From contig NZ_ADGX01000045.1 of assembly GCF_000177675.1 (NCBI RefSeq), positions 1 to 61,644 on the forward strand: a DNA stretch of 61,644 nucleotides, read 5' to 3'. This DNA comes from Parafrankia sp. EUN1f (GTDB taxonomy: Bacteria; Actinomycetota; Actinomycetes; Frankiales; Frankiaceae). A program made the translations under genes and the position numbers. Shown here piece after piece: positions 4,552 through 58,484 of this stretch. The notes beneath the pieces were generated by a model. It saw nothing but the letters and a program-made list of their open reading frames with translations. It was not told the DNA's origin and did no database searches. The first letter of the stretch is position 1. Each line of letters begins with the position of its first letter.

Positions 4552-4603
4552 GCAAGAATTGAGGATTTTGGCTGCTGCAACAACCGAAATTCTCACTTCT
4601 TGC
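4552..4603. repeat. 52-bp interspersed palindrome, copy A
   Basis: Imperfect palindrome bounded by GCAAGAA and TTCTTGC, with inner arms GAGGATTTTGG and CCGAAATTCTC. It lies between the sensor kinase and the universal stress gene. It matches the other 52-bp copies in the window (see findings). Confidence 0.85.
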
Positions 4604-4908
4604 GGATTGTTAAGTGACTCCTCGGCCCAGTTTGTCCATATTGGCGTGAATTGCTGGCGCTGCGGCGCTGGCTGCTGATCTCGCGGGTGACCCGACGCCC
4701 CGCGGGCGCGCCGCGTCTACTGGCACACCGCCGCAGCAGTCGATCTCACAATTTGCTGTGACATCCCGGGCGGATCCGACCCCCGATATTGACCCGTCGG
4801 TCCGCACCCACCCGCCGCAGGCCGATCCACCGTGGATCCCGCGCCGCCGCCACCAGGGCGACGGCCGCATGGTGCGTCCTTGCTACCCGACCAGGCGCGA
4901 GCGCGCCA

Positions 4909-4922
4909 GGGCCTTGGGTCCC
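4909..4922 (-). promoter_or_regulatory. Candidate DosR-type box upstream of USP gene
   Basis: On the minus strand this reads GGGACCCAAGGCCC, fitting GGGACnnnnGnCCC. It lies about 118 bp before the universal stress protein start. A match by eye only. The rest of the 4604-5039 spacer shows no gene. Confidence 0.3.
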
Positions 4923-5039
4923 GCCACCGGCGTGTCCGACGAACCGCGCACGGCAGATCGGACGACAGATGCACCGTTCCGGCCATGATGCGAAATTTGA
5001 ACTGTCAATTTTTCCTCAGCAACAAAAAGGTGGCCGGAA

Positions 5040-9336: not shown

Positions 9337-9654
9337 CGTGGTCCTCCTCCATCCATCCTGCGTGCCCGGCGCACCTGTCCGGGTGGGCCGGAAGGTGCTG
9401 GAGCCAGCCTGCGACGTGGGAGCGTGATGGGAAACCGACGAAGGGTGATCACAGCGGCAGTCCTTCGGCCCCCGCATCCAGTCCTTCGGCCTGTGGGGCT
9501 GGAGCGCCCGCGCCCGCGCCGGCGCCGGCGCCGGCGTCGGCACCTGCGGCGGGACGGAGGTCGAGCGACCCGTCGGGGATCCAGCGCCGCCGGGGCAACG
9601 CCGGCAATTCATGCCGATAGCGGCAAATGGGGCGCGGAGTTCGCCTGGCAGTCC

Positions 9655-9706
9655 GCAAGAAGTGAGGATCCCGGTTGTTCAAGCAGCCAAAATCCTTACT
9701 TCTTGC
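9655..9706. repeat. 52-bp interspersed palindrome, copy B
   Basis: Bounded by GCAAGAAGTGAGGAT and ATCCTTACTTCTTGC. The 25 bp upstream (GCGCGGAGTTCGCCTGGCA) also match those upstream of copy G at about 42490, so the homologous unit is longer than the hairpin. Its right end joins a microsatellite directly. Confidence 0.9.
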
Positions 9707-9793
9707 TCGGCGGCGGCGGCAGCGGCGGCGGCAGCAGCGGCAGCAGCGGCAGCAGCGGCGGCAGCGGCGGCAGCGGCAGCGGCGGCGGCAGCC
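9707..9793. repeat. (CGGCAG)/(CGG) microsatellite attached to palindrome B
   Basis: Irregular array of CGG, CAG and CGGCAG triplets starting at the last base of palindrome B. All steps are multiples of three although the region is non-coding. Confidence 0.9.
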
Positions 9794-17553: not shown

Positions 17554-17625
17554 AAGCCACCACCGGTCGGTGGCTCCCGCGTGCGTGGCAGATCCCGAGC
17601 TTCAGACAGCCGTTTGCTGTCGAAC

Positions 17626-17673
17626 AAGATCCGAGGAATTTGGTCGCCAGGAGGACGAGAATCCTCAGATCTT
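17626..17673. repeat. Interspersed palindrome, copy C (left of a pair)
   Basis: AAGATCCGAGGAATTTGGTCG...CGAGAATCCTCAGATCTT. It is paired with copy D, 48 bp away. The linker (CTTCGAGC...TTCGTTGC) is related to the linker in the 27.5-kb array. Confidence 0.85.
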
Positions 17674-17720
17674 CGAGCGGTGGTTTCGGGCTTCCGTTTC
17701 GGCCTTCGTTGCTGACGGGC

Positions 17721-17768
17721 AAGCCTTGAGGATTTCGGTCGCCGGAACGACGAAAATCCTCAGATCTT
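17721..17768. repeat. Interspersed palindrome, copy D (right of a pair)
   Basis: AAGCCTTGAGGATTTCGGTCG...CGAAAATCCTCAGATCTT. With copy C it forms a two-hairpin composite between the convergent decarboxylase and reductase genes. Confidence 0.85.
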
Positions 17769-17814
17769 CGGGGGGCAGGCGCGAGAACACTTGAATCCGG
17801 GCCGCCAACCAGAC

Positions 17815-26719: not shown

Positions 26720-28654
26720 GGCTGACTCCGGCCGCGGCCTGCGGTGCGGGCCTGCTGGAGGGGCGTCGTGATCCGGGCGGAAGGCAGCCTTGAGGCGCGC
26801 CATCGCCCCGCTCTCAACCATCGCCGAAGTTCCGACACGGTTGGTTACGTTAGTCGACGCATGGATTTTAGGCGTGCGGTCGGCAGGATCCGGCACATAG
26901 TCAACGGACGGCGGCGCGTGTCGGGGCCACCAGACGGGTGTCGACCAACGGATGCACCCGACGAGATGGATCATCACCGGTTGCCGTGTGATCCAGCGAT
27001 CAGAGATCTCCGTGTCGACAACGGAAGGTTTCGGATGTGACGGAACGAAGTGGCGGGCCAGTGGCTCGCGCCGTTCTGGCCACTGGATGCCACCCGACTG
27101 ATCGTCACAATAAGTGACGCGACTTGTGGTCTGCGATCGATCATGATGGCTGTCGTGGCCCCGTAGCACGGGCGGGGCGCGAGTGGCGATGGCCGGCGGG
27201 GCGATCGTGGCTGATGCCCGGTCATCCTCATCATCAGTGTGCAGCCGATCCGTGTGGGTCGTGTCGGTGGATCCGGGTGGCGCCGTGTGGAGTAAGTATG
27301 TGATCCGGTTTTGACGGTTTCCTAAGAATGGGATCCTGTCACGCAATCACGTCGATCAAGGTCGGTTAATCGGGTGGGCATGGCTGGGATCGCCGCTGAC
27401 GGGCGAGCCCGGGCTGCCCAGCCGAAGTCGCTCGCCCGGATCGGCCGCTTCTCGGGATTTTTGCCACCCGCGACCTGGCGACCATAGTCCTCAGGTCTTG
27501 CGCGGCAGTAGTGGCGGCCACGGCGGAAGCTCGAAGCCGCGGTTCGAAGAGTCGAGGATTGTGGCCGTTCTCGCGACCATAACCTTGAGGTCCTGCCCGG
27601 CAGTAGTGGCGGCCACGGCGGAAGCTCGAAGCCGCGGTTCGAAGAGTCGAGGATTGTGGCCGTTCTCGCGACCACAATCCTCAGGTCCTGCCCGGCAGCT
27701 ACGGCCGCGCTCGCGAGTAGCCCCGCGGCCGAGGAGATCGCCCGCCCCTGAACCGTCACCACCAGCGGCAACCACCAGACCCCACCCCGATCCTGCAGCG
27801 ATCGTCAGAAATCCCCGGCGCGATCTGCGACAGGCTCATGGGGGCACATTTTCGTCTGCCAGATGCTCGCGGCGTGTGTCGGGCAAGCGCTGACCAGTTT
27901 GGCCCACGGCAGCGCCGTAACAGCCAGGGCGGTTCGCCCGCATCTCTCGGCATTGCTGTGCGCGGCGGCTGCGGCCCCGCGCCACGGCGGCCCGCAGCTG
28001 TCGGGTGACCTGCTCGATGCTGCTCTTCCCGGCGGGAAAAGAGACCGGCCCGCCGCCGGGCGGTAAGCCTTTCGTCGGTCGGTCCGCCTGTCCGGTGCGG
28101 CAGTTCGGCGCGGCAGTTCGGCGCGCGACTTCGCACCGGCACGGACGGAAGACCCGTCCCGGTGGATTGTCCGTGCTGCGATGGTCGGTGTCGGATCCGA
28201 TCATCGGCACCGGCCACGGCGGTCGGGTGCTTGGGCGCGCGATGAGATGGTCAGGTTGGGGAGATTTGCCGCCGGGCGGGAGATCGGCGGGAGGGAACCG
28301 GACGGGCGCCGCGTGTGGCCGTGCTGTCGACCTGCCCCGTGGCCGCCGCCGGCGGATGGATCAGGCCGCGCGCCGCCGGTGGCCGGGCGGCCACCCTCGT
28401 CGTGTCACACGGTAATCGTGACTCGCGGCACGATGATCGAGACCGGTGACGCTGCGCGCCGGTCGACCCACCCGGCGGTCGACGACGACTCGCGGCCAGC
28501 GGGGCCGTGCCGCAGAACCCGACCGGGGGCACGGCGCGGCGGCGGGGCTGCTCCGACGGGTGGGCCCGACCGAGCCCGTCCAGACCCGGCCAGGGCTGAC
28601 CAGGGTCTACGGGCCACCGGCGATCAACGATCGTTTTGCCCGTAGGGTGACCGC
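26720..28654. other. ~1.9-kb repeat-bearing non-coding region
   Basis: Divergent spacer between the coiled-coil gene and muiA-like gene. It holds the 95-bp palindrome array (27478-27700). The remaining open frames (for example 27836-28210 minus, 28181-28645 plus) are Arg/Pro/Gly-rich with no recognisable domains. It could include decayed genes, but nothing can be named. Confidence 0.5.
27478..27702. repeat. 95-bp tandem array of interspersed palindromes
   Basis: Two full 95-bp units plus a partial third; the phase marker CGACCA(T/C)A recurs at 27479, 27574 and 27669. Each unit has a half hairpin CCTCAGGTC(T/C)TGC, then the linker CAGTAGTGGCGGCCACGG...GAAGCTCGAAGCCGCGG, then GTCGAGGATTGTGGCCG, so successive units form hairpins across the joint. 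Confidence 0.9.
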
Positions 28655-37422: not shown

Positions 37423-38003
37423 CCCTCCGTGCCCGGCCGTGACGTGCCGGGCGGTGTCGTTGTGGACCCCCCGATCCCACCCGCCTACTCCTGAGCGGAC
37501 GACCCTCCACAGGGCTTGGTCTGACGAAACTCCTACTGGTCACCCTGACGTGACTAGACAGTTGTGACGGCAGCGTACACGGAGGTGGGTGGCCACGTAG
37601 GCGGGGGGAGCTATCCCGCACGGACTGTCGCTCTGCGTGAGCGATGGTTGTTTCGGGCCGCACCTTGTCGTCTGGCCGACACCTTGCGGTGATTCTGGCG
37701 TTGATTCGGCACTCAATTTGTTAATTGAACTTGCTTCGCGGCCAGGTGGTGGTGATGCCGCAACCGAACAGGTGCGGAGGGTCTGGCCCCCGCCCGGCCC
37801 TGGTTCCGCTGTCACCGCACATACGCCTGTGGGGTAACGATGCGCATGCGCGTAACAGCGGCGACCCCCGACCCGGCGACCCGGGCTGGCGACCCCCGGG
37901 TCGGCGACCCGGCCCGGCGAGCTCCGGCCCGGCGAGCTCCGGCCCGGCGACCCTGATCCTCGGACCTTGCTCTGCAGCAGTGGCGGCCCGAAGTCGCGGC
38001 TCG

Positions 38004-38049
38004 AAGATCTGAGGATTCTGGTCGTTGGGCCGCGATCTTCAGATCTTGC
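38004..38049. repeat. Interspersed palindrome, copy F
   Basis: AAGATCTGAGGATTCTGGTCG ... GCGATCTTCAGATCTTGC, preceded by a degenerate half copy and linker (GATCCTCGGACC, then CAGCAGTGGCGGCCCGAAG, 37954-37992). The right end is continuous with a microsatellite. Confidence 0.85.
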
Positions 38050-42253: not shown

Positions 42254-42282
42254 GAGGCGCCGTGCGACGTCCAGCCGGTCTG

Positions 42283-42303
42283 CATAACGGTTATGTATAA
42301 CGG
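42283..42303. promoter_or_regulatory. Candidate PadR operator
   Basis: CATAACGGTTATG (42283-42295) is a near-perfect palindrome, followed at once by a TATAACGG half repeat. It lies 30 bp before the padR-like start in an otherwise GC-rich tract, the expected place for an autoregulatory site. Confidence 0.6.
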
Positions 42304-42512
42304 CTAGGTAGTGACTGTCAACGATCAGCCCGTCTGGGTGACCGTCGGCCCGCGTCGGACGCGGGCCGACGGTCACCCAGAGGTGATCGAAAGCTGGCCG
42401 GGTGGCGCTGGAGCGGTGCCTCGGCGGTTCCCTGCCGCCGGCCAGCGCCGCACGGCACCAGCAATTCACCATAAAAGGGTGCAAAAGGGGGCGCAGATTC
42501 GCCTGGCGACCC

Positions 42513-42564
42513 GCAAGAAAGAAGGATTTTGGTCGTCGGAACGACCAAAATCGTTCACTCTTGC
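42513..42564. repeat. 52-bp interspersed palindrome, copy G
   Basis: GCAAGAAAGAAGGATTTTGG ... CCAAAATCGTTCACTCTTGC with the near-perfect centre GGTCGTCGGAACGACC. Upstream GCGCAGATTCGCCTGGC matches the flank of copy B. Confidence 0.95.
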
Positions 42565-42652
42565 GACTCGCCAAACCGGGCTACCGGGCTACCAGGCGCT
42601 CGGGCTCTCGGAGGTCCCGCGCTCGTGGAGTGCGAACCTCCCTGCCCACCGA

Positions 42653-43126
42653 CTAGAGATCTTGATCGGCGTCGATCTGTGGCAGGCGGAATGTGGCGAC
42701 CCATCTGCGCTGCCAGGGGGTCTCGACCGCCCGGGGGTGGTGGTTTTCCCGGGTCCAGGTGATGGCGGTGGCGGGGTCCAGGCCGGTCAGCACGGCGAGG
42801 CAGGCGATGACCGTGCCGGTGCGTCCGACGCCGCCGCCGCACGCGACCTCGACCGCCGAGCCGGCGGGCTGCGCACGTTCGTGCAGCGTGTGGATGTGCC
42901 GGATGGCCTCGTCGCGATCACGGGGCAGCCCGAAGTCGGGCCAGTCGATCCACTGGCGCGCCCAGGTCAGCGCGTCGTCGTGCCGACGGCGCAGCCGCGG
43001 TGAGCCCAGGTAGAGACCGAAGTCGGGTGATCGTCCGTCCGGGCGGGGGTGGCGCAGGCCGCGCCCGCGGACCCAGGTGCCGTCGGGCAGTTCGATGGCG
43101 CCGGTGAGGGTGGGAACGCTCGGCAT
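42653..43126 (-). CDS. Dual-specificity/protein tyrosine phosphatase-like protein
   Basis: 157 residues. The P-loop VACGGGVGRTGTVIACLAVL fits CX5R(T/G) with the Cys nucleophile; the His usual before the Cys is Ala here. DPATAITWTRENH and the DWPDFGLPRD segment (general-acid loop) fit the family. It begins 1 bp after the cytochrome b stop, so it is the third gene of the sulfite-oxidase-like operon. The substrate (phosphotyrosine or phosphoinositide-like) is not known. Confidence 0.8.
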   Translation of the reverse strand: MPSVPTLTGAIELPDGTWVRGRGLRHPRPDGRSPDFGLYLGSPRLRRRHDDALTWARQWIDWPDFGLPRDRDEAIRHIHTLHERAQPAGSAVEVACGGGVGRTGTVIACLAVLTGLDPATAITWTRENHHPRAVETPWQRRWVATFRLPQIDADQDL

Positions 43127-43127
43127 T

Positions 43128-44487: not shown

Positions 44488-44562
44488 CTATGGCCTTGGT
44501 CAGGATCTCGGGGGCAGGTTCCGGCCGTGGAGCGGCAACGACGCAGAACCACGTGACGGTCA

Positions 44563-44614
44563 GCAAGAAGTGAGGATCTCGGTCGCTGCGGCAGCCGAAA
44601 TCCTCACTTCCTGC
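44563..44614. repeat. 52-bp interspersed palindrome, copy H
   Basis: GCAAGAAGTGAGGATCTCGG ... CCGAAATCCTCACTTCCTGC. Lies 75 bp upstream of the molybdoenzyme start. Followed 16 bp later by a tandem repeat. Confidence 0.95.
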
Positions 44615-44630
44615 TTAGAAGCAGCGGCGC

Positions 44631-44700
44631 GTGGCGGCCGCTCAGCGTGGCGGCCGCTCAGCGTGGCGGCCGCTCAGGGTGGCGGCCGCTCAGGGTGGCG
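44631..44700. repeat. 16-bp tandem repeat beside palindrome H
   Basis: GTGGCGGCCGCTCAGC/G repeated about 4.5 times, ending 12 bp from the ABC permease stop. Each unit carries a NotI-like GCGGCCGC palindrome and resembles the GTGGCGGCC part of the linker between paired palindromes. Confidence 0.95.
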
Positions 44701-44712
44701 GGTTCGTCCGGC

Positions 44713-46571: not shown

Positions 46572-46676
46572 CGGTTGTCATGTCGTCCGTCGAAAATCGT
46601 CATCGGTCTGCGCAGAGTGGCGGGCCGGTACCTACGCTTGCGGGAGTAGTCGCCGGGGCGCCTGCGCTGGGCGGCC

Positions 46677-47324
46677 TCAGCCCGCGAGCCCGGCCTGGTT
46701 GGCGAGCACGGCGAGCTGGGCGCGGTCACGGGCGGCGAGCTTGATCATCACCCTGCTGACGTGGGTTCGCGCGGTCGCCGGGCTGATGACGAGGTGGGCC
46801 GCGATCTCGTCGTTGGACAGGCCCATGCCCACGAGGCCCATGACCTCGCGTTCCCGGCCGGTGAGGCCGCTGAGATCCACCGCGGCCGGGGCACTGGGCC
46901 GCCGGGCGAACGCCTCGATGACCCGGCGGGTGACGGTGGGGGACAGCAGCGACTCGCCGGCGGCCACCACCCGGATGGCCCGCAGCAGGTCCGCGGGCTC
47001 GGCGTCCTTCAGGACGAAGCCGGAGGCCCCGTTGCGCAGCGCCTCGAAGACGTACTCGTCCAGCTCGAACGTGGTGACGATGACGACCCGGGTGGCTGCC
47101 AGCGCAGGGTCGGCGGTGATCTCCCGCAGCGCCGCCAGCCCGTCCAGGCCCGGCATCCGGATGTCGAGCAGGGCGACATCCGGGCTGACCCGGCGCACGA
47201 GGTCGAGCGCGGCCAGGCCGTTCTCCGCCTCGCCGACGAGCTCGAGGTCTGCCTCCGTCTCGATCAGGACCTTCAGCCCGAGGCGGATGAGCGGCTGGTC
47301 GTCGGCGATCACCACTCGGATCAT
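46677..47324 (-). CDS. NarL/DesR-family response regulator
   Basis: 215 residues. Receiver IRVVIADDQPLIRLGLKVLI with D54 in VALLDIRMPG, TT switch (VVIVTTFELDEY), K (GFVLKDAEP), then LuxR HTH LSGLTGREREVMGLVGMGLSNDEIAAHLVISPATARTHVSRVMIKL. The ATG at 47324 overlaps the kinase stop (ATGA), confirming the partner kinase and its final reading frame. Confidence 0.95.
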   Translation of the reverse strand: MIRVVIADDQPLIRLGLKVLIETEADLELVGEAENGLAALDLVRRVSPDVALLDIRMPGLDGLAALREITADPALAATRVVIVTTFELDEYVFEALRNGASGFVLKDAEPADLLRAIRVVAAGESLLSPTVTRRVIEAFARRPSAPAAVDLSGLTGREREVMGLVGMGLSNDEIAAHLVISPATARTHVSRVMIKLAARDRAQLAVLANQAGLAG

Positions 47325-48993: not shown

Positions 48994-49106
48994 CGTTCCG
49001 ACGGTAACCGGCGGCGGTCCGGAAGGGCATCCGTCCCGAGGCGTAGACCGGGATACCGCAACGGACGTACCGCGTCCGGCGCAGGGCGGGAGCGCGAACG
49101 GCCAGC

Positions 49107-49154
49107 GGTGGCCAGCGTCAGTGGTGGCCAGCGTCAATGGTGGCCAGCGTCAAT
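49107..49154. repeat. 16-bp tandem repeat, 3 copies
   Basis: GGTGGCCAGCGTCA(G/A)T in tandem just before the LmeA-like gene stop on the opposite side, in the spacer to the kinase gene. Non-coding. Confidence 0.9.
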
Positions 49155-49159
49155 GGTGG

Positions 49160-49900
49160 TCAGTGGCGGGCGGGCTCGCGCTGCTCGAAGCGCAGGCGCA
49201 GGCCTTCGGGGGTTGCGACAGCGTCGGCGAGACGGGTCCCGCGGGGAAAGGACGGCAGGATCACCACCGGCTCGGCGAAGACCGCCGTGTTCGCGGAGGT
49301 CATCAGCTCACCCGGCAGCCGCTGGTTCCCCAGGACGATCTCGTCCGGCAGCAGGGCGAGGCGGCCGTCCCGGACCAGGGGGATGCCGATGATCCGGATG
49401 GCCAGCGTGCGGTTGCCCAGGTCGATCTCGGTGCCGATGGACAGTCGCTCGTCGCCGCCGTAGGTGATGTCCGTCCACCGCGCCTCGGGTGGGGACATCC
49501 TGGCCGGGTCGCCGTCGAAGACGGGCCCGCAGGAGTCGCCGAAGACCCCCAGATAGCCGCCGAACAGGGACATCAGCGCGTAGGCCGGGTCGTCCCAGGT
49601 GTTGCCGGCGGCATCGCAACCGCGTCGCAACCGTCGCAGCTCGCCGTAGGACGCCGTCGCGCTGACCTCGAGGACTGCCTGGCGCCCGGTGGCCGCGTGC
49701 AGCAGATAGGGGAACCGCGGCGGCCGGACCCGCACCGTCGCGTCCAGCGCTCCGAGACGTCCGCTCAGCCGGCGGTTGGCGCGGCGGACCGCGAGCCGCG
49801 CGGCCAGCCGGTCGACCGCCGCACCGGCGAGCGTGCCACCGATCACGGCAAGGGAGATGGACGGGGCGGCTGGACGCGGCCTGGCGGCGGACGGCGGCAT
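49160..49900 (-). CDS. LmeA/DUF2993-like exported protein
   Basis: 246 residues from ATG at 49900. Hydrophobic N-terminus (SISLAVIGGTLAGAAVDRLAAR) then a beta-rich domain with VRVRPPRFPYLLHAATGRQ, TEIDLGNRTLAIRIIGIPLVRDGRLALLPDEIVLGNQ, resembling the LmeA-like phospholipid-binding (DUF2993) family of mycolata, where LmeA affects lipomannan/membrane lipids. Match is by pattern only. Confidence 0.6.
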   Translation of the reverse strand: MPPSAARPRPAAPSISLAVIGGTLAGAAVDRLAARLAVRRANRRLSGRLGALDATVRVRPPRFPYLLHAATGRQAVLEVSATASYGELRRLRRGCDAAGNTWDDPAYALMSLFGGYLGVFGDSCGPVFDGDPARMSPPEARWTDITYGGDERLSIGTEIDLGNRTLAIRIIGIPLVRDGRLALLPDEIVLGNQRLPGELMTSANTAVFAEPVVILPSFPRGTRLADAVATPEGLRLRFEQREPARH

Positions 49901-49956
49901 GGCGGCTCCTCGGGGATCCGTACTGGAGGCCCAGGTGCTCGTGTTCGTCTGGATCA

Positions 49957-50013
49957 GGTTCACAGCGGGCGCTGTCGACGTCCCTCCAACGAGACAGCGC
50001 CCAGCTGTGAACC
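49957..50013. terminator. Long imperfect hairpin
   Basis: Arms GGTTCACAGCGGGCGCTGTC (49957-49976) and GACAGCGCCC-AG-CTGTGAACC (49993-50013). Lies between the Ser/Thr-rich gene and the LmeA-like gene on the minus strand. Probable terminator or operator; no U tract. Confidence 0.6.
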
Positions 50014-50158
50014 GGATACGAGATGAAACTGAATTACCTGTGCACTCACTGGTACGTCGCGGTGCCGTGTGAAACCTCACGCGAAAGCTTCGGCCCGTCC
50101 TGCCTCCACCCGGCCAACCCGGGTGGACATACCGGACCGAGGGCCGCGGCCGCTCGGA

Positions 50159-50674
50159 TCAGCCGCAGCCGATGAGGCAGCTTGGGAGCGTCACGGGCGG
50201 CAGCCGCAGGTCGAGGCCCGGCGCCTGGGTGTTCCCGGCGCGTGGCCTGGCCGTCGTGGCCCTTGGCCGCGTGCTGCTCGGCCGGGTGGTCGTCGCGGAC
50301 TGTGAGCGCACTGTGGTGGTGCCGGCGCTGTCGGCCGCGTCGCTGTCGCCGCCCTCGGACGATGTCTGCCCGGCGGTGCCCTTCCCCGCCGGCCGGGTGC
50401 TGGAACTGGGCGTTGTGGTCGGGGTGGCCGGGGTGCGGCTGTCGCCGGCCCCGGTGGGGGAGGTCGGTGCGGCGGTGCGGCAGGCCGGTGCGGAGGCAGC
50501 CGTCCCAGAGCTGGCCGCGCCGGATCGACATTCCTCGGCCACGGCCGAGGAGCCGCCGCCGCCCGAGCCCTTCTGCCCGACCATGAAGGCGGCCACGAGC
50601 GCGATCACCGCCAGCGCCCCGGTAATCAGCTGGGACCTGGGGATCGGTCGCGCGGACCCGCGATGTGTGCTCAC
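50159..50674 (-). CDS. Single-pass membrane protein with Thr/Ser/Pro-rich tail (hypothetical)
   Basis: 171 residues from GTG at 50674. One TM (LITGALAVIALVAAFMVG), then a disordered extracytoplasmic part rich in Ser, Thr, Pro and Ala, ending LPPVTLPSCLIGCG. Four Cys occur in the exterior part. No family is recognised. It may be a wall-spanning or glycosylated protein. Confidence 0.55.
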   Translation of the reverse strand: MSTHRGSARPIPRSQLITGALAVIALVAAFMVGQKGSGGGGSSAVAEECRSGAASSGTAASAPACRTAAPTSPTGAGDSRTPATPTTTPSSSTRPAGKGTAGQTSSEGGDSDAADSAGTTTVRSQSATTTRPSSTRPRATTARPRAGNTQAPGLDLRLPPVTLPSCLIGCG

Positions 50675-50818
50675 TTCGGTCCGTCCGTTTCGTGCGTGGT
50701 GGCGGTGAGCACCGGGCGGTCCCGCCACTCACGCCACGGACACTACGGACATCGGGGAGCAGTTACGACAGGGGCCCCTGTTTCCCTCGTTCCGCCCTCC
50801 GGGTGGGTGTGTGCCGGC

Positions 50819-51769
50819 TCAGCCGGCGGCGACCGGCGTGGGCTGCTGTGCCTCGCGGGCGGCCCGGCGGGCCGCTGCGGCGGCCTTCTTCTCCGTCTGG
50901 CGGGTGGCGAGCGCGTCGAGGCCGCTCATGAAGACGCCGATGTCCGCCTGTGCCTTCGCGGCGTCGCCCGACAGACCCTCGAGGCTGAGCAGCTTCCAGT
51001 GCCGCAGGATGGGAGCGACCACGTCGTCGTGATGGATCCGCAGGTCGTAGATGCCGGACTGGGCGATGTAGCGGGCCTTGCGGCCGAAGTCCCGGATGCC
51101 GGTGCCGGGCATCTCGAACTTCATCAGCTCGTCCCGGATGATCGGCAGCAGGCGCTCCGGGGCCAGCTCCAGGGCCGCGGCGACCAGGTTCCGGTAGAAG
51201 ATCATGTGGAGGTTCTCGTCCGCGGCGACGCGGGTGAGCAGCCTCTCGGCGAAGGGCTCGCCGGTGACGCGCCCGGTGTTGCGGTGGCTGACCCGGGTCG
51301 CCAGCTCCTGGAACGACACGTAGGTCATCGCCTCCAGCGCGGTCTTCGCCCCGGAGTCGTAGCCGCGCTGCATCTGCAGCATCCGGTCGCGCTCCAGCGT
51401 CACGGGGTCGACCGCGCGGGTCACCAGGAGATAGTCCCGCATGGCCATCGCGTGGCGGCCCTCTTCGGCGGTCCAGCGGCCGACCCACGTCCCCCATGCG
51501 CCGTCCCGCCCGAACGCGACCGCGATCTCGCGGTGATAGCTGGGCAGGTTGTCCTCGGTGAGGAGGTTGACCTCGAAGGCCATCTGGGCCGCCTCGGAGA
51601 GCACGGACTGCTCCGGGGCCCACGGCGTCGTGTCGAAGTCACGGCCCTGGCTCCACGGGACGTACTCGTGTGGCATCCACTCCGCCGCGATGCTCAGATG
51701 CCGGTTGACGTTCGCTTCCGCGACCGGCTCAAGTTCGCGCAACAGGTCGATGTCCGTAGGGGATCCCAT
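50819..51769 (-). CDS. Acyl-ACP desaturase (DesA/stearoyl-ACP desaturase family)
   Basis: 316 residues from ATG at 51769. The soluble di-iron desaturase motifs EEGRH (TAEEGRHAMAMRDY) and DENLH (AADENLHMIFYRN) are present, with PWSQGRDF and YHREIAVAFG blocks. It introduces a double bond into acyl-ACP, using ferredoxin and O2. Closest in style to mycobacterial DesA1/DesA2. Lys/Ala-rich C-terminus. It is transcribed away from a 250-bp spacer toward the Thr/Ser-rich gene. Confidence 0.92.
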   Translation of the reverse strand: MGSPTDIDLLRELEPVAEANVNRHLSIAAEWMPHEYVPWSQGRDFDTTPWAPEQSVLSEAAQMAFEVNLLTEDNLPSYHREIAVAFGRDGAWGTWVGRWTAEEGRHAMAMRDYLLVTRAVDPVTLERDRMLQMQRGYDSGAKTALEAMTYVSFQELATRVSHRNTGRVTGEPFAERLLTRVAADENLHMIFYRNLVAAALELAPERLLPIIRDELMKFEMPGTGIRDFGRKARYIAQSGIYDLRIHHDDVVAPILRHWKLLSLEGLSGDAAKAQADIGVFMSGLDALATRQTEKKAAAAARRAAREAQQPTPVAAG

Positions 51770-52017
51770 AGATGAACTCTGACATCGCTCCATGATTGAT
51801 GGCCATGGCCACCCGGAGTGGAATCCGAACCTAAAACTGTCTCCAGGGAACAGTTTTCATGGGCTACCTTCCGGCCGGTCAGGGGACTTCTGCCCGCGCG
51901 GGACAACTCGCGGCCCGCGTTGGGGTAACCCGCGCCGTGCCGCGGTGACCGTGCCGGGCTGGGGACGGCTACGCGGTCCCCGGTCCCCGGTCACCGGGGG
52001 CTGGGGGCTGGGGACCG

Positions 52018-52689
52018 CTAGAGCGACTGCGACGACTGGAGCGTCCGCGCCGACCCGGACAGCAGTGCGTCCAGGACGGCCTCGGCCCCGGTCGCCCGGT
52101 CCGCGACGATCCAGGGGGCGACCCAGCCGTCCGCCGCCAGGTGGCGGTAGATGCCGGCGCAGCGTTCCTGGAGCCCCTCGTCGCGCTCGAACGTGTCCAG
52201 CGCGCGGGTGGCGTCGCCGGCGGCGCGCTGGCGGGCCGCCGCGCGGGCCGTTTCCACCGGGACGTCCAGCAGCACCTGGAGATCCGGCCGCGGCAGGCGC
52301 AGGGCGGTCAGCTCCAGCTCGGCGATCCAGGCCAGGAAGTCAGGCCGCTCGTCGGCGGGCAGGCGGGCGGCACCGTACGCGGCGTTGGAAGCCAGGTAGC
52401 GGTCGACGAGGAGGACGTCGTGCTCGGCCGCGCGGGCGGCGAGCTCGGGCAGCGCGTTCGCCCGGTCGAGGGCGAACAGCAGGGCCGTGGCCCGGGCCGA
52501 CCCCGCAACCCCGGCGAGGCGCTCGTCGCCGTCGAGCATCGCCCGGACGGCGGTGCCGAGCGGCCCGGCCGTGTAGCGGGGGAAGGAGAAGGTCGCGGCG
52601 GTGCGCCCGGCCGCGGTCAGGGCCTCGACGAGACGGGAGGTGAGGGTGTGCTTTCCCGCACCGTCGACGCCCTCGATCGCGACGATCAT
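52018..52689 (-). CDS. tmk: Thymidylate kinase
   Basis: 223 residues. P-loop IAIEGVDGAGKHTLTSRLVEAL (Lys present, His at the usual Ser/Thr position), VDRYLASNAAYGAARLP (the DR(Y/H) substrate motif) and LQVLLDVPVETARAAARQRA. Phosphorylates dTMP to dTDP. Stand-alone between the desaturase and an amidohydrolase gene, both on the same strand. Confidence 0.93.
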   Translation of the reverse strand: MIVAIEGVDGAGKHTLTSRLVEALTAAGRTAATFSFPRYTAGPLGTAVRAMLDGDERLAGVAGSARATALLFALDRANALPELAARAAEHDVLLVDRYLASNAAYGAARLPADERPDFLAWIAELELTALRLPRPDLQVLLDVPVETARAAARQRAAGDATRALDTFERDEGLQERCAGIYRHLAADGWVAPWIVADRATGAEAVLDALLSGSARTLQSSQSL

Positions 52690-52835
52690 CGTGCTGCCGC
52701 CCGCGGACCGGCGAATGCCCGCCGCTGCTCGATCCTGCTCATAGGGCCGTCAGCCTATGGCAACTCGCCGCGGGGGTCGGGCCGGTCTGCTCGGCCACGA
52801 TGCCACCCGCGGGCTCGGCTGATGCTGCTTCCGGA

Positions 52836-52884
52836 CAAGATCTGAGAATTATGGTCGTCGGGACGACGGAGATCCTCAACGCTT
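52836..52884. repeat. Interspersed palindrome, copy I
   Basis: CAAGATCTGAGAATTATGG ... GGAGATCCTCAACGCTT with centre GGTCGTCGGGACGAC. Separated from copy J by a linker, GCTTCGAATCGCGGCTTCCGG ... GGCGGCCACTGCTACCTG, which is the reverse complement of that at 27.5 kb. Confidence 0.85.
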
Positions 52885-52930
52885 CGAATCGCGGCTTCCG
52901 GCTGCCGCCGCGGCGGCCACTGCTACCTGA

Positions 52931-52979
52931 CAAGGCCTGAGGACTTTGGTTGCCAGAACGACCAAAATCCTCAACCCTT
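52931..52979. repeat. Interspersed palindrome, copy J
   Basis: CAAGGCCTGAGGACTTTGG ... CCAAAATCCTCAACCCTT. Second hairpin of the pair. Confidence 0.85.
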
Positions 52980-53019
52980 CGCCCTCCTCCCGGAAAAGGA
53001 GCTACTGAGGCGCCGAACA

Positions 53020-54450
53020 CTAGTGCGGCTGCGGCTGCGGCTGGGGCTCGACCGGCGACGCCGCGGTCTCCGGCGCTCCGGTCTCCGGCGCCGCGATCTC
53101 CACCGTCGCGGACGCGGCTGCCGCGGTTGGCGCGACCGCCGGGAGGCGCGAGGCGGTGACCGCCGCGGTCTCCCGGCCCGGCTCGTCCAGCCGGTAGACG
53201 CGGCGGGCGTTCCCGGCGCCGATCATCTCCGCCAGCCGGGTGGCGTCCTGCTCGGTCCAGTCGCCGTCGGCGATCCCGTCCGCCAGCACGGTCGACAGGG
53301 CTCGGCGGAACAGCAGCGAGCCGAGCAGGTAGAGCTCGCCGAGCCCGAACGCGTCGGTGGAGAACAGGAACCTGCTGAACGGGACCAGCTCAAGCGCCTC
53401 GCCGAGCAGCACCGGCGCCCGGCGCCCGAGGTTCTGGAGGGCGAGCCCGACGTCCATGTGCACGGTGGGCAGGATCTGGGCCAGGTAGCCGGCCTCGCGG
53501 TGGTAGGGGTAGCAGTGCAGGAGCATCACCGGCACCCCGGTCGGTGCGAGCGCCCGCAGCAGGCCGGTGAGCAGCAGCGGGTTGCAGCGGTCGAGGTCGA
53601 GATCGGCGTCGCCGTAGCCGACGTGGATCTGGATGGGCAGACCGGCGTCCACCCCGGTCCAGATCAGGAAGGCGTGCAGCAGCGGGTTCGCCAGCCGGAT
53701 GGGCACTCCCCGCCGGATCAGGGCCATCCACTCCCGCACGGCGGCGGTGACCTCACGGTCGGTCGGCCGGGCCGCCGGCAGCGCGAGGCCGACCCGGTAG
53801 GCGGCGACGGACTTCAGCCCCACGGTTGTCGGGCTCGCCCCGGCGATCCGCTCGCGGATGGTGTCGGCGAAGTGGTTGACGCCGAGCTGGCCGGTGACGA
53901 TGTCGACCGCCAGGGTCTCGGCGAGCCGTTCGAGCCGCAGGATGTCGTGGCCTGCCGCGCCGCAGGCGACGGCGAGCTCACCCGCTGACATCAGCGGCTC
54001 CGGCAGGTAGCCGGCGTCGACGCAGAAGGCGCCGATCCCGGCCGCGCGCACGAACCGTCGGTTGACCTCCTCCACACCGAGCTCCCCGCGGCGCGCCAGA
54101 TAGTCCTCGGGACTGCTGTGCGGGGCGAGGTCGAGGACGGGAGCGCACCAGCGCCGCACGGCGAAGCCGACATGACTGTCGAAGAGCGTGGTGCCGGCCG
54201 GGGCGGGCTCGTCGGACTCGGTGAGCATGCGCTCGAAGTCCGGACGGCTGAGGTCGCGGGTGAGCAGCCCGTGGCAGTGATGGTCCACCAGGGAGAGGTT
54301 CTCCACGAAGGGCAGCACCTCATGATCATGCCCGGTTCTGGGGAGGGCACACTCCCAGACTGTGGATAACTTGTGGATGACCGCGGTCCGCCTGGGGATA
54401 TCAGCGCCCGGAGGAGTGGTCTGCCCCTGCTGGCCGGGGGTTTCCGACAT
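53020..54450 (-). CDS. Amidohydrolase-family protein (FluG N-terminal-like)
   Basis: 476 residues from ATG at 54450 (GTG at 54318 is equally plausible). TIM-barrel metallo-hydrolase with LVDHHCHGLL (metal HxH), VGLKSVAAYRVGLAL, LPIQIHVGYGDADLDL, VMLLHCYPYHREAGYLAQ and FLFSTDAFGLGELYLLG (metal Asp). It resembles the amidohydrolase half of FluG/GlnA-like proteins, without the glutamine synthetase domain. Pro/Ala/Glu-rich C-terminal tail. Substrate unknown. Confidence 0.82.
   Translation of the reverse strand: MSETPGQQGQTTPPGADIPRRTAVIHKLSTVWECALPRTGHDHEVLPFVENLSLVDHHCHGLLTRDLSRPDFERMLTESDEPAPAGTTLFDSHVGFAVRRWCAPVLDLAPHSSPEDYLARRGELGVEEVNRRFVRAAGIGAFCVDAGYLPEPLMSAGELAVACGAAGHDILRLERLAETLAVDIVTGQLGVNHFADTIRERIAGASPTTVGLKSVAAYRVGLALPAARPTDREVTAAVREWMALIRRGVPIRLANPLLHAFLIWTGVDAGLPIQIHVGYGDADLDLDRCNPLLLTGLLRALAPTGVPVMLLHCYPYHREAGYLAQILPTVHMDVGLALQNLGRRAPVLLGEALELVPFSRFLFSTDAFGLGELYLLGSLLFRRALSTVLADGIADGDWTEQDATRLAEMIGAGNARRVYRLDEPGRETAAVTASRLPAVAPTAAAASATVEIAAPETGAPETAASPVEPQPQPQPH
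54361..54382. other. Pair of DnaA-box-like sequences
   Basis: TGTGGATAAC (complement of the consensus TTATCCACA) followed by TTGTGGATGA (one mismatch). In the possible N-terminus of the amidohydrolase; if real sites, they favour the later start at 54318. No oriC context (no dnaA or dnaN nearby). Confidence 0.4.
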
Positions 54451-54962
54451 CGGCACCTGTGGATGGCCGCCCGCCGGGACGACCGCGTCGCGGCTGCGGC
54501 GCGGGTACGGCGCGGCTGCGGGGGTGGGTGGGTACGGGGGTGGGTACGGGGCGGCTGCGGCGCGGGTACCGGGGCGGGAACGGCGTGGCTGCGGGGCGGG
54601 CGTCGGCGAGCGTGGGGCGCGCCGAGCCGGAGCGTCACCGATGTTTGACATGTTTCCTGTCGCCTTGTCGGCGGACGCATGCTCGTCGAGCCCGGGGTGA
54701 CGCGGCCGGACGGCGGGCCCGGGCGGTCGGCGGGCCGTTTCGGGGTCGGTCTGTGGGCGGCGTGGGAACCCCTGTTGTTCCGTAGTTGTGGCATCTTCGC
54801 AGGCGAGGGGGTATCCATACCGGGTCGGCGGGGTGGTGCCGCGTTCCAGGCGACGAAATGTATGTCACTAATCTTGGCGCTCGCCGGCGAAACAGTCGAA
54901 AATCGACGGACCCCCTCGGTCCGTGCGGGACGTTCCGGGGCACATTCCATGAGGAGCCGCGC
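54451..54962. other. Divergent spacer, amidohydrolase / pyruvate carboxylase
   Basis: No gene is seen. It contains a GGTACGGGGTGGGTACGGGG-type tandem series (about 54510-54580). An AT-richer part at 54850-54910 probably holds the carboxylase promoter. Confidence 0.45.
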
Positions 54963-57900
54963 GTGCGCAAGGTGCTTGTGGCAAACCGCAGTGAGATCGC
55001 GGTCCGGGTGTTCCGGGCCGCGTATGAGCTCGGGCTGCGCACCGTCGCGGTCTACACCCCGGAGGACGTGGCGGCGCTGCACCGGACGAAGGCGTCCGAG
55101 GCGTACGAGCTGTGCGAGCCGGGTCATCCCGTACGGGGATATCTGGACATAGACGCGCTGCTGCGGGTCGCGAAGATCGCCGATGCGGACACGCTGCATC
55201 CGGGCTATGGGTTCCTGTCGGAGTCGGCGGTGCTCGCCGAGGCGTGCGCGGCGGCCGGTGTCACGTTCGTCGGCCCGCCGCCGGCGGTCCTGCGGTTGAC
55301 CGGTGACAAGGTGGCGGCGCGCAACGCGGCGATCGCGGCGGGCCTTCCGGTGCTGCGGGCCTCGGAGCCGCTGCCGGACGGCACGGGCTTCGCGGCGGCG
55401 GCCGAGGCGGTCGGCTTTCCGCTGTTCGTGAAGGCGTCCGGTGGCGGCGGTGGGCGCGGTCTGCGCCGGGTCGAGCGGCCCGAGGACCTGGCCGACGCGG
55501 TGACAAGCGCGTCGCGCGAGGCGGCGGCGGCCTTCGGCGACGGGACGGTGTTCCTGGAGCAGGCCGTGGACCGGCCCCGCCACGTCGAGGTGCAGATCCT
55601 CGCCGACAGCTACGGCAACGTGATCCACCTGTTCGAGCGGGACTGCTCGGTGCAGCGCCGGCACCAGAAGGTCGTGGAGATCGCACCCGCGCCGGCGCTG
55701 GACTCCGGTGTGCGCGACGCGCTGTGTGACGCGGCGGTGCGCTTCGCCCGGCACGTGGGCTACGTCAACGCCGGCACCGTGGAGTTCCTGGTCGGCGCGG
55801 ACGGCACGTTCACCTTCATGGAGATGAACCCGCGCATCCAGGTGGAGCACACGGTGACCGAGGAGGTCACCGGGGTCGACATCGTCGGTGCGCAGCTGCG
55901 GATCGCGGCCGGGGAGAGCCTGGCCGATCTGAACCTGTCGCAGGAGTCCGTCTCGCTGCGGGGGACGGCGATCCAGTGCCGGGTGACCACGGAGGACCCC
56001 TCCGACGGATTCCGGCCCGACACCGGAACGATCACCTTCTACCAGTCGCCGGGCGGGCCCGGAGTACGCCTGGACGGTGCCACCTATCCGGGTGCGGAGG
56101 TCAGCCCGTACTTCGATTCGCTGCTGGTCAAACTGACCGCGCGTGGCGCGACGCTGGAGAAGGCGTCGCGGCGGGCCCGCCGTGCCCTGAAGGAGTTCAG
56201 GGTGCGCGGAGTACGGACCAACATCGAGTTTCTCACCAGCCTGCTGGCCGATCCCGACTTCCTGGCCGGTGGGGTGACGACGTCCTTCATCGACGAGCGG
56301 CCGGGGCTGCTGAGCGCTGCCGATGACAGCGACGCGACCAGCCGCATGCTGGCCCGCCTCGCCGAGAGCACGGTGAACGGCCACGCCCGGCCCGCGGGCG
56401 GCGCGCTGACGGACCCGCGCACCATGCTGCCGCCGCTGTCCGCCGACACCCCGGCCTCGGGGTCGCGGCAGCGCCTCGTCGCCCTCGGCCCGGCCGGCTG
56501 GGCCGCCGATCTGCGGGCCCGCACCGAGCTCGCGGTCACCGACACCACGTTGCGCGACGCGCACCAGTCGCTGCTGGCGACCCGGCTGCGCAGCTTCGAC
56601 ATCCTGGCCGCCGCCCCGGTGTTCGCCGAGGCGACACCGGGCCTGCTGAGCCTGGAGTGCTGGGGCGGGGCCACCTACGACGTGGCGCTGCGCTTCCTGT
56701 CCGAGGACCCGTGGGAGCGCCTCGCCGCCCTGCGCGCGGCGGTGCCGAACATCTGCCTGCAGATGCTGCTGCGCGGCCGCAACGCCGTCGGCTACACCCC
56801 CTACCCGGACGACGTCGTGCGCGCGTTCGTCGCGGAGGCCGCCGCGACCGGCCTCGACATCTTCCGGATCTTCGACGCGCTCAACGACATCGAGCAGATG
56901 CGCCCCGCGATCGAGGCCGTCCTGGAGACCGGCACGGCCCTCGCCGAAGGCACCCTGTGCTACACGGGCGACCTCACCAACCCCGGTGAGCGGATCTACA
57001 CCCTCGACTACTACCTGCGCCTCGCGGAGCAGCTCGTCGACGCCGGCGTGCACCTGCTCGCCATCAAGGACATGGCCGGGCTGCTGCGCCCCGCCGCCGC
57101 GAGCCAGCTCGTCACCGCGCTGCGGGAACGGTTCGACCTGCCCGTCCACCTGCACACCCACGACACCGCCGGCGGGCAGCTCGCCACCCTGCTGGCCGCG
57201 TCCGCGGCCGGGGTCGACGCGGTCGACGCCGCCGCCGCGCCGATGTCCGGTGGCACCAGCCAGCCGAACCTGTCCGCGCTCGTCGCCGCCACCGACCACA
57301 CCGACCGGGCGACCGGCATCCCGCTGGCGGCCCTGTCCGCGATGGAGGCGTACTGGGAGGCGGTCCGTGACCTGTATGTGCCGTTCGAGGCCGGGCTGCG
57401 CGCACCGACCGGCGCGGTGTACCGGCACGAGATCCCCGGCGGTCAGCTGACCAACCTGCGCCAGCAGGCCATCTCCCTGGGCCTCGGTGACCGCTGGACC
57501 GAGGTCACCGAGTGCTACGCCGTCGCCAACGAGCTGCTCGGCAAGCCCATCAAGGTCACCCCCACCTCCAAGGTCGTCGGCGACCTCGCCCTTTACATCG
57601 CCGGCGGCTCCGTCGACGTCGACCGGCTGCGTGACCACCCCGAGGAGTACGACCTGCCCGCGAGCGTCCTGGGCTACCTCGCCGGGGAGCTGGGCACCCC
57701 GCCCGCCGGGTTCGCCGAGCCGTTCCGCGAGCGTGCGCTGGCCGGGCGCCACCCCGAACCGCCGGCCGCCACCCTCGCCCCCGACGACGCCGCCGCCATC
57801 GCCGATCCGGGCGCCGGCCGGCGCGCCGCCCTGTCCCGGCTGCTGTTCCCCGGCCCGTGGAAGGACTACACCCAGGCCGTCGCCGCCTACGGTGACTCCT

Positions 57901-58346
57901 CCGTCATCCCCACCGAGGCGTTCCTGTTCGGCCTGCAGCCCGGCCGCCCCGCCCACGTCTTCCTCGAACCCGGCGTCGAGATCATCGTCGAGCTCGAAAC
58001 CATCGGGGAGCCTGACGACGCCGGCATGCGCACCCTGTACCTGCGGGTCAACGGCCAGCCCCGGCCCGTCCGGGTCCGGGACAAGTCGATCACCACCACC
58101 GCCGCCGCGGCCCGGCGCACCGACCCGAACAACCCCGGCCACGTCGGCGCCGGCCTGCCCGGCATCGTCACGTTCGCCGTCGCCGTCGGCGACACCGTCG
58201 AGAAGGGCCAGAAGCTCGCCGTCATCGAGGCCATGAAGATGGAAGCCGCCGTCACCAGCCCCGCCGCCGGCACCGTCACCGAGCTCGTACGCACCAGCGG
58301 CGAGTCCGTCGAGGTCGGCGACCTGCTGCTGGTACTGGCCTCCTGA
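54963..58346 (+). CDS. pyc: Pyruvate carboxylase
   Basis: 1127 residues, the standard length. Biotin carboxylase domain (about 1-450: KVLVANRSEIAVRVFRAA, KASGGGGGRGLRRV ATP-grasp loop, FMEMNPRIQVEHTVTEEVTG), carboxyltransferase TIM barrel (about 530-810: DTTLRDAHQSLLATRLR, LECWGGATYDVALRFL), PC/OADA domain (MSGGTSQPN, VYRHEIPGGQLTNLR) and C-terminal biotinyl domain (EAMKMEA with biotin Lys1092). Makes oxaloacetate from pyruvate. GTG at 54963 has GAGGAG 6 bp upstream. Confidence 0.97.
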   Translation: MRKVLVANRSEIAVRVFRAAYELGLRTVAVYTPEDVAALHRTKASEAYELCEPGHPVRGYLDIDALLRVAKIADADTLHPGYGFLSESAVLAEACAAAGVTFVGPPPAVLRLTGDKVAARNAAIAAGLPVLRASEPLPDGTGFAAAAEAVGFPLFVKASGGGGGRGLRRVERPEDLADAVTSASREAAAAFGDGTVFLEQAVDRPRHVEVQILADSYGNVIHLFERDCSVQRRHQKVVEIAPAPALDSGVRDALCDAAVRFARHVGYVNAGTVEFLVGADGTFTFMEMNPRIQVEHTVTEEVTGVDIVGAQLRIAAGESLADLNLSQESVSLRGTAIQCRVTTEDPSDGFRPDTGTITFYQSPGGPGVRLDGATYPGAEVSPYFDSLLVKLTARGATLEKASRRARRALKEFRVRGVRTNIEFLTSLLADPDFLAGGVTTSFIDERPGLLSAADDSDATSRMLARLAESTVNGHARPAGGALTDPRTMLPPLSADTPASGSRQRLVALGPAGWAADLRARTELAVTDTTLRDAHQSLLATRLRSFDILAAAPVFAEATPGLLSLECWGGATYDVALRFLSEDPWERLAALRAAVPNICLQMLLRGRNAVGYTPYPDDVVRAFVAEAAATGLDIFRIFDALNDIEQMRPAIEAVLETGTALAEGTLCYTGDLTNPGERIYTLDYYLRLAEQLVDAGVHLLAIKDMAGLLRPAAASQLVTALRERFDLPVHLHTHDTAGGQLATLLAASAAGVDAVDAAAAPMSGGTSQPNLSALVAATDHTDRATGIPLAALSAMEAYWEAVRDLYVPFEAGLRAPTGAVYRHEIPGGQLTNLRQQAISLGLGDRWTEVTECYAVANELLGKPIKVTPTSKVVGDLALYIAGGSVDVDRLRDHPEEYDLPASVLGYLAGELGTPPAGFAEPFRERALAGRHPEPPAATLAPDDAAAIADPGAGRRAALSRLLFPGPWKDYTQAVAAYGDSSVIPTEAFLFGLQPGRPAHVFLEPGVEIIVELETIGEPDDAGMRTLYLRVNGQPRPVRVRDKSITTTAAAARRTDPNNPGHVGAGLPGIVTFAVAVGDTVEKGQKLAVIEAMKMEAAVTSPAAGTVTELVRTSGESVEVGDLLLVLAS

Positions 58347-58432
58347 GTTCCTGACACACGTAGCAAGATCCCGAGAAGTGGCGGATCCGGACCGTCGACT
58401 TCGAGGGGCGCGTGGGGTGGGGTTGCGAATCC

Positions 58433-58484
58433 GCAAGATCTGAGGATTGCGGTCGTTCCAACGACCGCAATCCTCAGGTTTTGT
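58433..58484. repeat. 52-bp interspersed palindrome, copy K
   Basis: GCAAGATCTGAGGATTGCGG ... CCGCAATCCTCAGGTTTTGTC with perfect centre GGTCGTTCCAACGACC. It sits between convergent pyruvate carboxylase and glycosyltransferase genes and may also serve as a terminator. Confidence 0.95.

What the first reader, a model, noticed from the sequence alone, without database searches (positions are those of the whole stretch)
4552..58484. A dispersed 52-bp palindrome family at nine intergenic loci
Copies at 4552, 9655, 42513, 44563 and 58433 are all exactly 52 bp, from GCAAGA to TCTTGC or TTTGTC, with inner arms GAGGATT.TGGTCG / CGACCAAAATCCTC. Further copies lie at 17626, 17721, 38004, 52836 and 52931 and in the 27.5-kb array. 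All are between genes and the centres vary while the arms are conserved, as expected for a REP- or MITE-like element rather than a terminator. No transposase or RAYT is in this window.
Basis: seen in the sequence. Interest (0 to 1): 0.8.

Follow-up and report, generated by a model that had tools for sequence, protein, structure and literature searches.

The report
Hairpin repeats scattered at gene ends
A short mirror-image DNA sequence has been copied a few hundred times into the gaps behind genes of a Frankia-family bacterium; it looks like a worn-down mobile element whose copies now sit where transcription should stop, and the enzyme that spread it does not seem to be the usual one.

Summary
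The repeat is real. The window holds 12 full palindromes plus two half-arms at nine intergenic loci. Whole-genome scans show it is genome-wide: about one per 35 kb, roughly 270 copies by extrapolation, in the own genome and in one congener (G004). Four other congeners gave no match. The 48-52 bp palindrome is the hub of a longer modular element (about 245-400 bp) with further arms at the ends of some copies; some copies form tandem units of exactly 95 bp. None of 105 copies lies inside a predicted gene. Copies are strongly enriched between convergent genes and behind stop codons.

The RAYT reading fails: no Y1 transposase in the own genome, Y1 genes in congeners without the repeat, no REP tag. 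Arms covary between paralogues, but 24 arm substitutions in six orthologous copies include no compensated pair: copies look symmetric at birth and erode afterwards. No clean empty site, target duplication or autonomous partner was found.

Best reading: a decaying MITE/REP-like family retained at gene ends, where its hairpin may stand in for the terminator. Separately, all four copies found of an IS30-like element in G004 adjoin a broken arm of this palindrome.

The parts
4552..4603 (.). 52-bp palindrome, part of a type A composite (nhmmer match 4521-4691, minus strand)
   Evidence: orthologous copy in G004
9655..9706 (.). 52-bp palindrome, part of a type A composite (match 9565-9729, plus strand), followed by a GCGGCGGCA short tandem repeat
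   Evidence: orthologous copy in G004
17624..17675 (.). palindrome, first of two tandem units 95 bp apart, between convergent genes
   Evidence: G004 has only one unit here
17719..17770 (.). palindrome, second of the 95-bp pair
27479..27499 (.). right half-arm, remnant of the first unit of the 27.5-kb array
27545..27596 (.). palindrome, array unit (95-bp period)
   Evidence: present in G004
27640..27691 (.). palindrome, array unit (95-bp period)
   Evidence: present in G004
37948..37968 (.). degenerate right half-arm upstream of the 38-kb copy
38002..38049 (.). palindrome 4 nt shorter at the centre, followed by a CGGCAG short tandem repeat 38051-38197
   Evidence: G004 has the longer centre
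42443..42687 (+). type B composite element (about 245 bp), dispersed in G000 and G004
   Evidence: many non-orthologous matches start near query 1444 and end by 1688
42513..42564 (.). 52-bp palindrome inside the type B composite
44563..44614 (.). 52-bp palindrome, absent from G004 at this place; followed by a 16-bp tandem repeat 44629-44701
52835..52886 (.). palindrome, first of a 95-bp pair; G004 carries a type B element in this gap instead
52930..52981 (.). palindrome, second of the 95-bp pair
58433..58484 (.). 52-bp palindrome between convergent genes; G004 carries a type B element in this gap

Best explanation
A non-autonomous, non-coding mobile repeat family of MITE/REP type whose unit is a palindrome with arms AAGAnnTGAGGATTnnGGTCG. 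It occurs alone, in 95-bp tandem units, or as the hub of composites of about 245-400 bp, some of which carry further arms at their ends. SHOWN: dispersal, anatomy, presence in two of six congeners searched, position behind genes, symmetry among paralogues, erosion between orthologues, no Y1 transposase in the own draft genome. INFERRED: it was spread in trans by a transposase that recognised the hairpin arms, from source copies that were symmetric when copied, and that enzyme is now lost or not yet identified. Also inferred: copies are tolerated or kept mainly at gene 3' ends, where the double-faced hairpin can end transcription from both sides and stands in for the ordinary terminator hairpin.
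For: 105 copies in 2.04 Mb, 0 in 800 kb shuffled. 36 of 78 occupied gaps are convergent against 110 of 798 gaps of at least 100 bp, occupied ones included (Fisher p=1e-10); 0 of 105 copies inside predicted genes; in 30 of 33 tandem gaps the copy is nearer the upstream stop. Module L and the type A flank never occur without a palindrome within 250 bp (0 of 47, 0 of 49), the type B flank once in 13. 30 of 34 unpaired arms lie 47-241 bp from a palindrome start, as composite ends or array remnants. Ten perfectly paired arm variants, six of them seen once; Watson-Crick pairs 1719 of 2208 against 1555 +/- 17 in whole-arm shuffles. G-U no commoner than A-C and no preferred orientation to transcription (17 v 21). 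In convergent gaps of 100-700 bp a second strong hairpin is rare beside the palindrome, 4 of 27, against 22 of 52 gaps without it (p=0.02). Patchy: 3 of 296 class genomes match the strict pattern, the own genome being one.
Against: No clean empty site or target duplication: at the polymorphic loci looked at, the whole gap differs between G000 and G004. No autonomous partner with these ends was found in the part searched. No sign of recent activity for the one element compared: best non-orthologous matches of the 42.5-kb element are 87% over about 240 bp and up to 92% over about 119 bp. No compensated change between orthologues (0 among 24 arm substitutions), so a kept hairpin function is not shown. 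The hairpin replacement is not seen in tandem gaps: second strong hairpin 13% with the palindrome masked, 17% in gaps without it. No T-run: in 41-60 kb only 1 of 5 copies is called terminator-like.
Confidence: 0.55

Rival explanations
1. A classical REP/REPIN family mobilised by a resident RAYT (Y1 HUH transposase).
For: Short intergenic palindromes in hundreds of copies, tandem and composite forms, bias to convergent and unidirectional gaps as reported for REPs in PMC3733652 (passages).
Against: No Y1_Tnp in the own genome; Y1 present in G001 (4 matches), G002 (3) and G003 (9), where the palindrome was not found. GTAG/GTGG/CGTC tag near a foot in 5 of 95 copies against a control mean of 15.7. 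Six of the 18 Y1 matches were read with about 1.5 kb on each side (five in congeners without the repeat, one of the two in G004): no arm better than 14 of 21.
Confidence: 0.07
2. A MITE of a specific DDE insertion sequence whose terminal inverted repeats are the arms (a special case of the best explanation, so the odds overlap).
For: Some composites carry arms at their ends; no coding content noted.
Against: No insertion sequence with these ends was seen among the unpaired arms in 2.04 Mb or at 11 end-type sites fetched from the G000 list (the 11 stretches were read by profile and pattern, not gene by gene); no target duplication seen.
Confidence: 0.25
3. An ordinary terminator family that became alike by selection or convergence, not mobile.
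For: Gene-end position; apparent replacement of other hairpins in convergent gaps; similar GAGGAT..GTCG hairpins behind genes in Actinoallomurus.
Against: Homologous flanking modules far beyond any terminator; no match in four congeners; mostly no T-run; erosion without compensation.
Confidence: 0.15
4. A structured non-coding RNA (3' UTR element or retroelement RNA) read from one strand of the composite.
For: The one composite folded is more stable than shuffles on both strands, z -7.5 on one and -4.4 on the other.
Against: No preferred orientation to transcription (17 v 21); G-U pairs no commoner than A-C on the transcribed strand (54 v 62); no Rfam family at its gathering score over the element in 14 loci.
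Confidence: 0.05

Closest known systems
REP / BIME / REPIN elements with RAYT
   Same: Intergenic palindromes in hundreds of copies, tandem groups, 3'-end and convergent bias (PMC3733652 passages, PMC3116915 abstract).
   Different: Longer (48-52 bp), no GTAG/GTGG/CGTC tag, no Y1 transposase in the own genome, embedded in composites of about 245-400 bp.
MITEs
   Same: Small, non-coding, arms at the ends of some composites, patchy between close relatives.
   Different: No target duplication and no autonomous partner seen; the same arm sequence also forms a solid internal palindrome.
Terminator-like hairpins in Actinoallomurus and in the Frankiaceae MAG Chersky.28_11
   Same: Share the GAGGAT....GTCG arm core; in Actinoallomurus several seem to lie just behind a stop codon (read by eye, frames not checked).
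   Different: Only 9 and 9 places in the two Actinoallomurus genomes and 3 in the MAG (counted, 150 candidates scored in each); different outer stems (GCC/GGC, GGG/CCC); no composite flanks seen by eye.
Palindromic target sites of insertion sequences (IS30 hot spots; ISPpu9 in REPs)
   Same: All four copies found of an IS30-like element in G004 adjoin a broken arm of this palindrome; IS30 is reported to use nearly palindromic hot spots (PMC9333248 passages).
   Different: Only left junctions are seen, each at a contig end; family assignment rests on an 82-residue fragment; the element is not in G000, so it cannot explain the repeat itself.

Membership tests
REP/REPIN | Short palindrome, high copy, intergenic | tested here: met
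   105 copies in 2.04 Mb, 0 inside predicted genes; but 48-52 bp against the 20-40 bp stated in the abstract of PMC3733652
REP/REPIN | GTAG/GTGG or CGTC tag at the foot of the hairpin | tested here: not met
   5 of 95 copies within 8 nt of either foot, control mean 15.7, range 9-28
REP/REPIN | Cognate RAYT (Y1 HUH transposase) in the genome | tested here: not met
   0 in own genome, control genomes ring; distribution across 6 congeners does not follow the repeat; the own genome is a draft of 396 contigs, 99.13% complete
MITE | Terminal inverted repeats, no coding capacity | tested here: inconclusive
   Arms at the ends of some composites; many copies lack them; coding capacity not tested separately
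MITE | Target site duplication at an otherwise clean empty site | tested here: inconclusive
   G000/G004 polymorphic gaps differ over their whole length
MITE | Autonomous element with the same ends | tested here: inconclusive
   None seen in 2.04 Mb nor at 11 further end-type sites; the rest of the genomes was not read
Intrinsic terminator | Position just downstream of genes, including convergent pairs | tested here: met
   with my own gene calls
Intrinsic terminator | T-run directly after the stem | tested here: not met
   1 of 5 copies in window 41000-60000 called; 2 sites found in all against 3.0 in shuffles; the other 7 window copies were not scanned
Intrinsic terminator | Ends transcripts in vivo | not testable with these tools
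   needs term-seq or reporter assays
Rfam RNA family | Match at the family's curated gathering score | tested here: not met
   only sub-threshold microRNA-hairpin matches over the elements in 14 loci; none over the copies in the window

The most novel reading that the evidence does not exclude
A palindromic mobile family that spreads by an enzyme other than a Y1/RAYT. Each new source variant would be symmetric at birth, because one arm templates the other during copying. Insertion or survival would be aimed at gene ends, so that the element replaces the host's terminator and then decays; an IS30-like element exploits it as a landing site.
Probability: 0.25. Interest if true: 0.75.

Novelty: new variant of a known kind. 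Interest (0 to 1): 0.5.

Why it matters
High-copy palindromic repeats are commonly explained by a resident RAYT. Here a dense family in a Frankiaceae genome lacks both the RAYT and the REP tag. It has a modular composite form, was not found in four of its congeners, and seems to trade places with terminator hairpins between convergent genes. It offers a tractable case for asking who mobilises tag-less palindromes and whether mobile hairpins are recruited as terminators.

Tried and rejected
RAYT: rejected. RNA function: a strong fold of the one composite tried was followed up and set aside, because orientation and G-U against A-C counts show no strand preference. Rfam: microRNA hits below threshold are hairpin noise; the tRNA, ASdes and c-di-AMP riboswitch hits are elsewhere. 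Empty-site search in G001, G002, G003, G005: at 44.5 kb the gaps are unalike in all, at 42.5 kb the flanks were not found in the stretches held. Empty-site search G000/G004: gaps replaced as a whole. Autonomous partner: none seen. Viral contigs (strict pattern), plasmids and phages (one composite as query): no match. Actinoallomurus as full homologues: only the hairpin core is shared. Literature: searches were judged by titles and abstract starts, and none describes this repeat; one search listed nothing. Two Frankia papers were searched for the terms (passages only): PMC4447401 counted palindromic repeats in ACN14a, CcI3, EAN1pec and Dg1 in a supplementary table that I did not see; PMC3188489 has nothing on it in the passages shown. 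The library is open access only.

Limits: the gene map is from my own codon-bias caller, not an annotation. The copy number of about 270 is an extrapolation from 22 copies in 760 kb of G000 contigs taken by number, and 23 in 797 kb of G004, of which contig C6 was already known to hold hits. Absence from congeners rests on the 99 best first-look candidates per genome, and for G001-G003 also on a strict pattern (G005 was not in that sample). The ten copies of G004 contig C36 were dropped from the gap counts as orthologues of the window; two edge copies had no context. The orthologue count uses six pairs; the shared loci at 17.6 kb (unit number differs) and 38 kb (centre length differs), and the diverged pair L019/L068, were left out. 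That G000 is Frankia sp. EUN1f / Parafrankia is recall, not from a call; the family Frankiaceae is inferred (same-family genome G011 and the named MAG have the same size, match count and best E-value).

Full report
OBSERVATION. The ten coordinates hold palindromes. An arm scan and a covariance model built from 11 window copies (R1) find 12 full copies at nine intergenic loci, plus two half-arms; 11 of the 12 match R1 by construction. In two genomes the arm-pair scan finds 37 copies in 862 kb of G000 and 68 in 1182 kb of G004, and 0 in 800 kb of locally shuffled sequence. In G000 contigs taken by number there are 22 in 760 kb, and in two long G004 stretches 23 in 797 kb (4 in one, 19 in the other, the latter known beforehand to hold hits). 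That extrapolates to about 270 per genome. The window, with 12, is enriched. The R1 search of the own genome scored 150 candidates and all 150 matched, both strands counted.

DISTRIBUTION. Of 58 genomes searched with R1 (the own one among them; 99 candidates scored in each), the own genome and G004 reach the cap, G011 has 6 weak matches and G046 has 2; the other 54, including four congeners, have none. A strict pattern of the core hits 3 of 296 genomes of the class: G000 48, G004 26, G011 3, with the reversed control at 0. A scan of about 85,000 species found a strict palindrome pattern in a Frankiaceae MAG and in two Actinoallomurus species only (near relatives of the window may be left out there). 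R1 then gives 9, 9 and 3 places in A. spadix, A. soli and the MAG. Those hairpins share GAGGAT....GTCG but have other outer stems, and several seem to lie just behind a stop codon (read by eye). No match in viral contigs, plasmids or phages.

ANATOMY. The palindrome is the hub of a longer repeat. Left of it, many copies carry a conserved module ending ...CGCTTGGCAATCCGC. Right of it they carry either type A (GCTCGG..GCAGCAGC.. and a second hairpin) or type B (GCGACTCGCCAAACCGGG...). Eleven type A copies match most of a 438-position profile; their far-left part is alike in only some. Of 95 copies, 18 carry L plus A, 11 L plus B, 17 L only, 6 A only, 1 B only; 21 sit in tandem groups (19 without a module, one with A, one with L); 21 show nothing recognised. 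Neighbour spacings under 300 bp are 95 bp seven times, 84 twice, and 83, 96, 159, 172, 192 and 232 once each. Modules L and A never occur without a palindrome within 250 bp. Of 34 unpaired arms, 30 lie 47-241 bp from a palindrome start, as composite ends or array remnants; three others are weak and far away, and one 20/21 arm stood at the very end of a G004 contig, which led to the IS30-like insertion. At 17.6 kb G004 has one palindrome where G000 has two 95 bp apart, as expected from recombination between units.

POSITION. With my own gene calls, 0 of 105 copies lie inside a gene. Occupied gaps are convergent in 36 of 78 against 110 of 798 gaps of at least 100 bp (p=1e-10) and divergent in 9 of 78 against 207 of 798 (p=0.004). 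In 30 of 33 tandem gaps the copy lies nearer the upstream gene's end, median 126 bp against 322 bp. Element orientation to transcription is 17 v 21. In convergent gaps of 100-700 bp, those without the palindrome hold a strong hairpin in 22 of 52 cases; those with it hold a second one, once it is masked, in 4 of 27 (p=0.02), though they are longer (median 288 against 177 bp). In tandem gaps there is no such difference (13% of 23 against 17% of 60). This fits replacement of ordinary terminator hairpins between convergent genes, but it is indirect.

ARMS. In 92 copies 1719 of 2208 pairs are Watson-Crick, against 1555 +/- 17 when whole right arms are dealt out among copies (300 shuffles, maximum 1606); related subfamilies can produce part of this. 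Ten different hexamers at positions 4-9 occur in perfectly paired form, in 31 copies, six of them once. On the 11 window copies the covariation score was reached by 14 of 500 shuffles, while the measures that count compensated pairs were not unusual (120 and 78 of 500). Against a kept hairpin: six orthologous pairs G000/G004 differ at 24 arm positions with 0 compensated pairs. G-U and A-C mismatches are equal (150 v 152; 54 v 62 on the transcribed strand of tandem gaps), so RNA pairing leaves no mark. I read this as source variants that were symmetric when copied, followed by erosion.

MOBILISER. Y1_Tnp (RAYT and IS200) has 0 matches in G000, 2 in G004, 4 in G001, 3 in G002, 9 in G003, 0 in G005: no link to the repeat. 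The REP tags are not enriched (5 of 95, control 15.7). Of eleven end-type arms chosen from the G000 list, ten lie in stretches with profile matches of the composite; the eleventh (C359) has no such match, and no transposase was looked for gene by gene. Comparison of the window with its G004 counterpart (91.6-97.2% identical in the aligned blocks) shows shared copies at 4552, 9655, 17.6 kb, 27.5 kb, 38 kb and 42.5 kb. One copy is in G000 only (44563) and one in G004 only (C36 position 18685). At 52.8 and 58.4 kb G004 carries another subfamily in the same gap. In none of these, nor in the further cases, is there a clean empty site. The mobile origin is therefore inferred from dispersal, modularity and patchiness, not from a caught event.

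IS30-LIKE INSERTIONS. The contig end carries an open frame (82 residues) that starts like an IS30-family protein (recalled). Pfam HTH_38 matches at E=0.007, below its cut-off, and NCBIfam gives nothing, so the family name is tentative. Its head occurs four times in G004, always at or near a contig end; in the genus the only other matches are two 34-bp stretches in G000. All four left junctions break an arm of the palindrome: three at the same base near the centre, one at the end of the left arm. The right junctions are not in view.

LITERATURE. REP features were taken from passages of PMC3733652 and PMC6006769 and the abstract of PMC3116915; IS30 target preference from passages of PMC9333248; ISPpu9 in REPs from the abstract start of PMC8450116 in a listing. 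Searches for this repeat in Frankia papers listed none that describes it by title or abstract start; PMC4447401 counted palindromic repeats in four other Frankia genomes (passages).

VERDICT. A real high-copy palindromic repeat family, not described as far as these searches reach. It works like a REP/MITE but fails the two tests that mark a RAYT-driven REP. Its likely present effect is at transcript ends.

Noticed in passing
G004 contig ends C6, C10, C13, C17 (L179, L180, L177, L175): All four copies found of an IS30-like element adjoin a broken arm of this palindrome, three at the same base.
   Followed up: partly
window 25766-25942 (-): c-di-AMP riboswitch (Rfam RF00379) just upstream of the ORF 24655-25761 (-).
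   Followed up: no
window 51396-51463 (+): ASdes sRNA match (RF01781), antisense to the fatty acid desaturase gene 50819-51793.
   Followed up: no
window 9708-9792, 38051-38197, 44629-44701: Short tandem repeats lie next to three of the palindromes; tandem growth may begin at the element's GC-rich right flank.
   Followed up: no
window 42333-42381: A perfect 24-bp inverted repeat with a 1-nt centre just upstream of the 42.5-kb element, unlike it by eye.
   Followed up: no
L063 (G004 C10) 1757-2279 and 16622-17088: Two copies of a larger modular repeat (79% identical) around a variant palindrome with arm AAGATCAAGGGATTTTGGTCG, perfect in one copy.
   Followed up: partly
L099, L100, L101, L103, L105-L108, L110 (Actinoallomurus): Hairpins with the same GAGGAT..GTCG core, several apparently behind stop codons, with variable but mostly paired inner stems.
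   Followed up: partly
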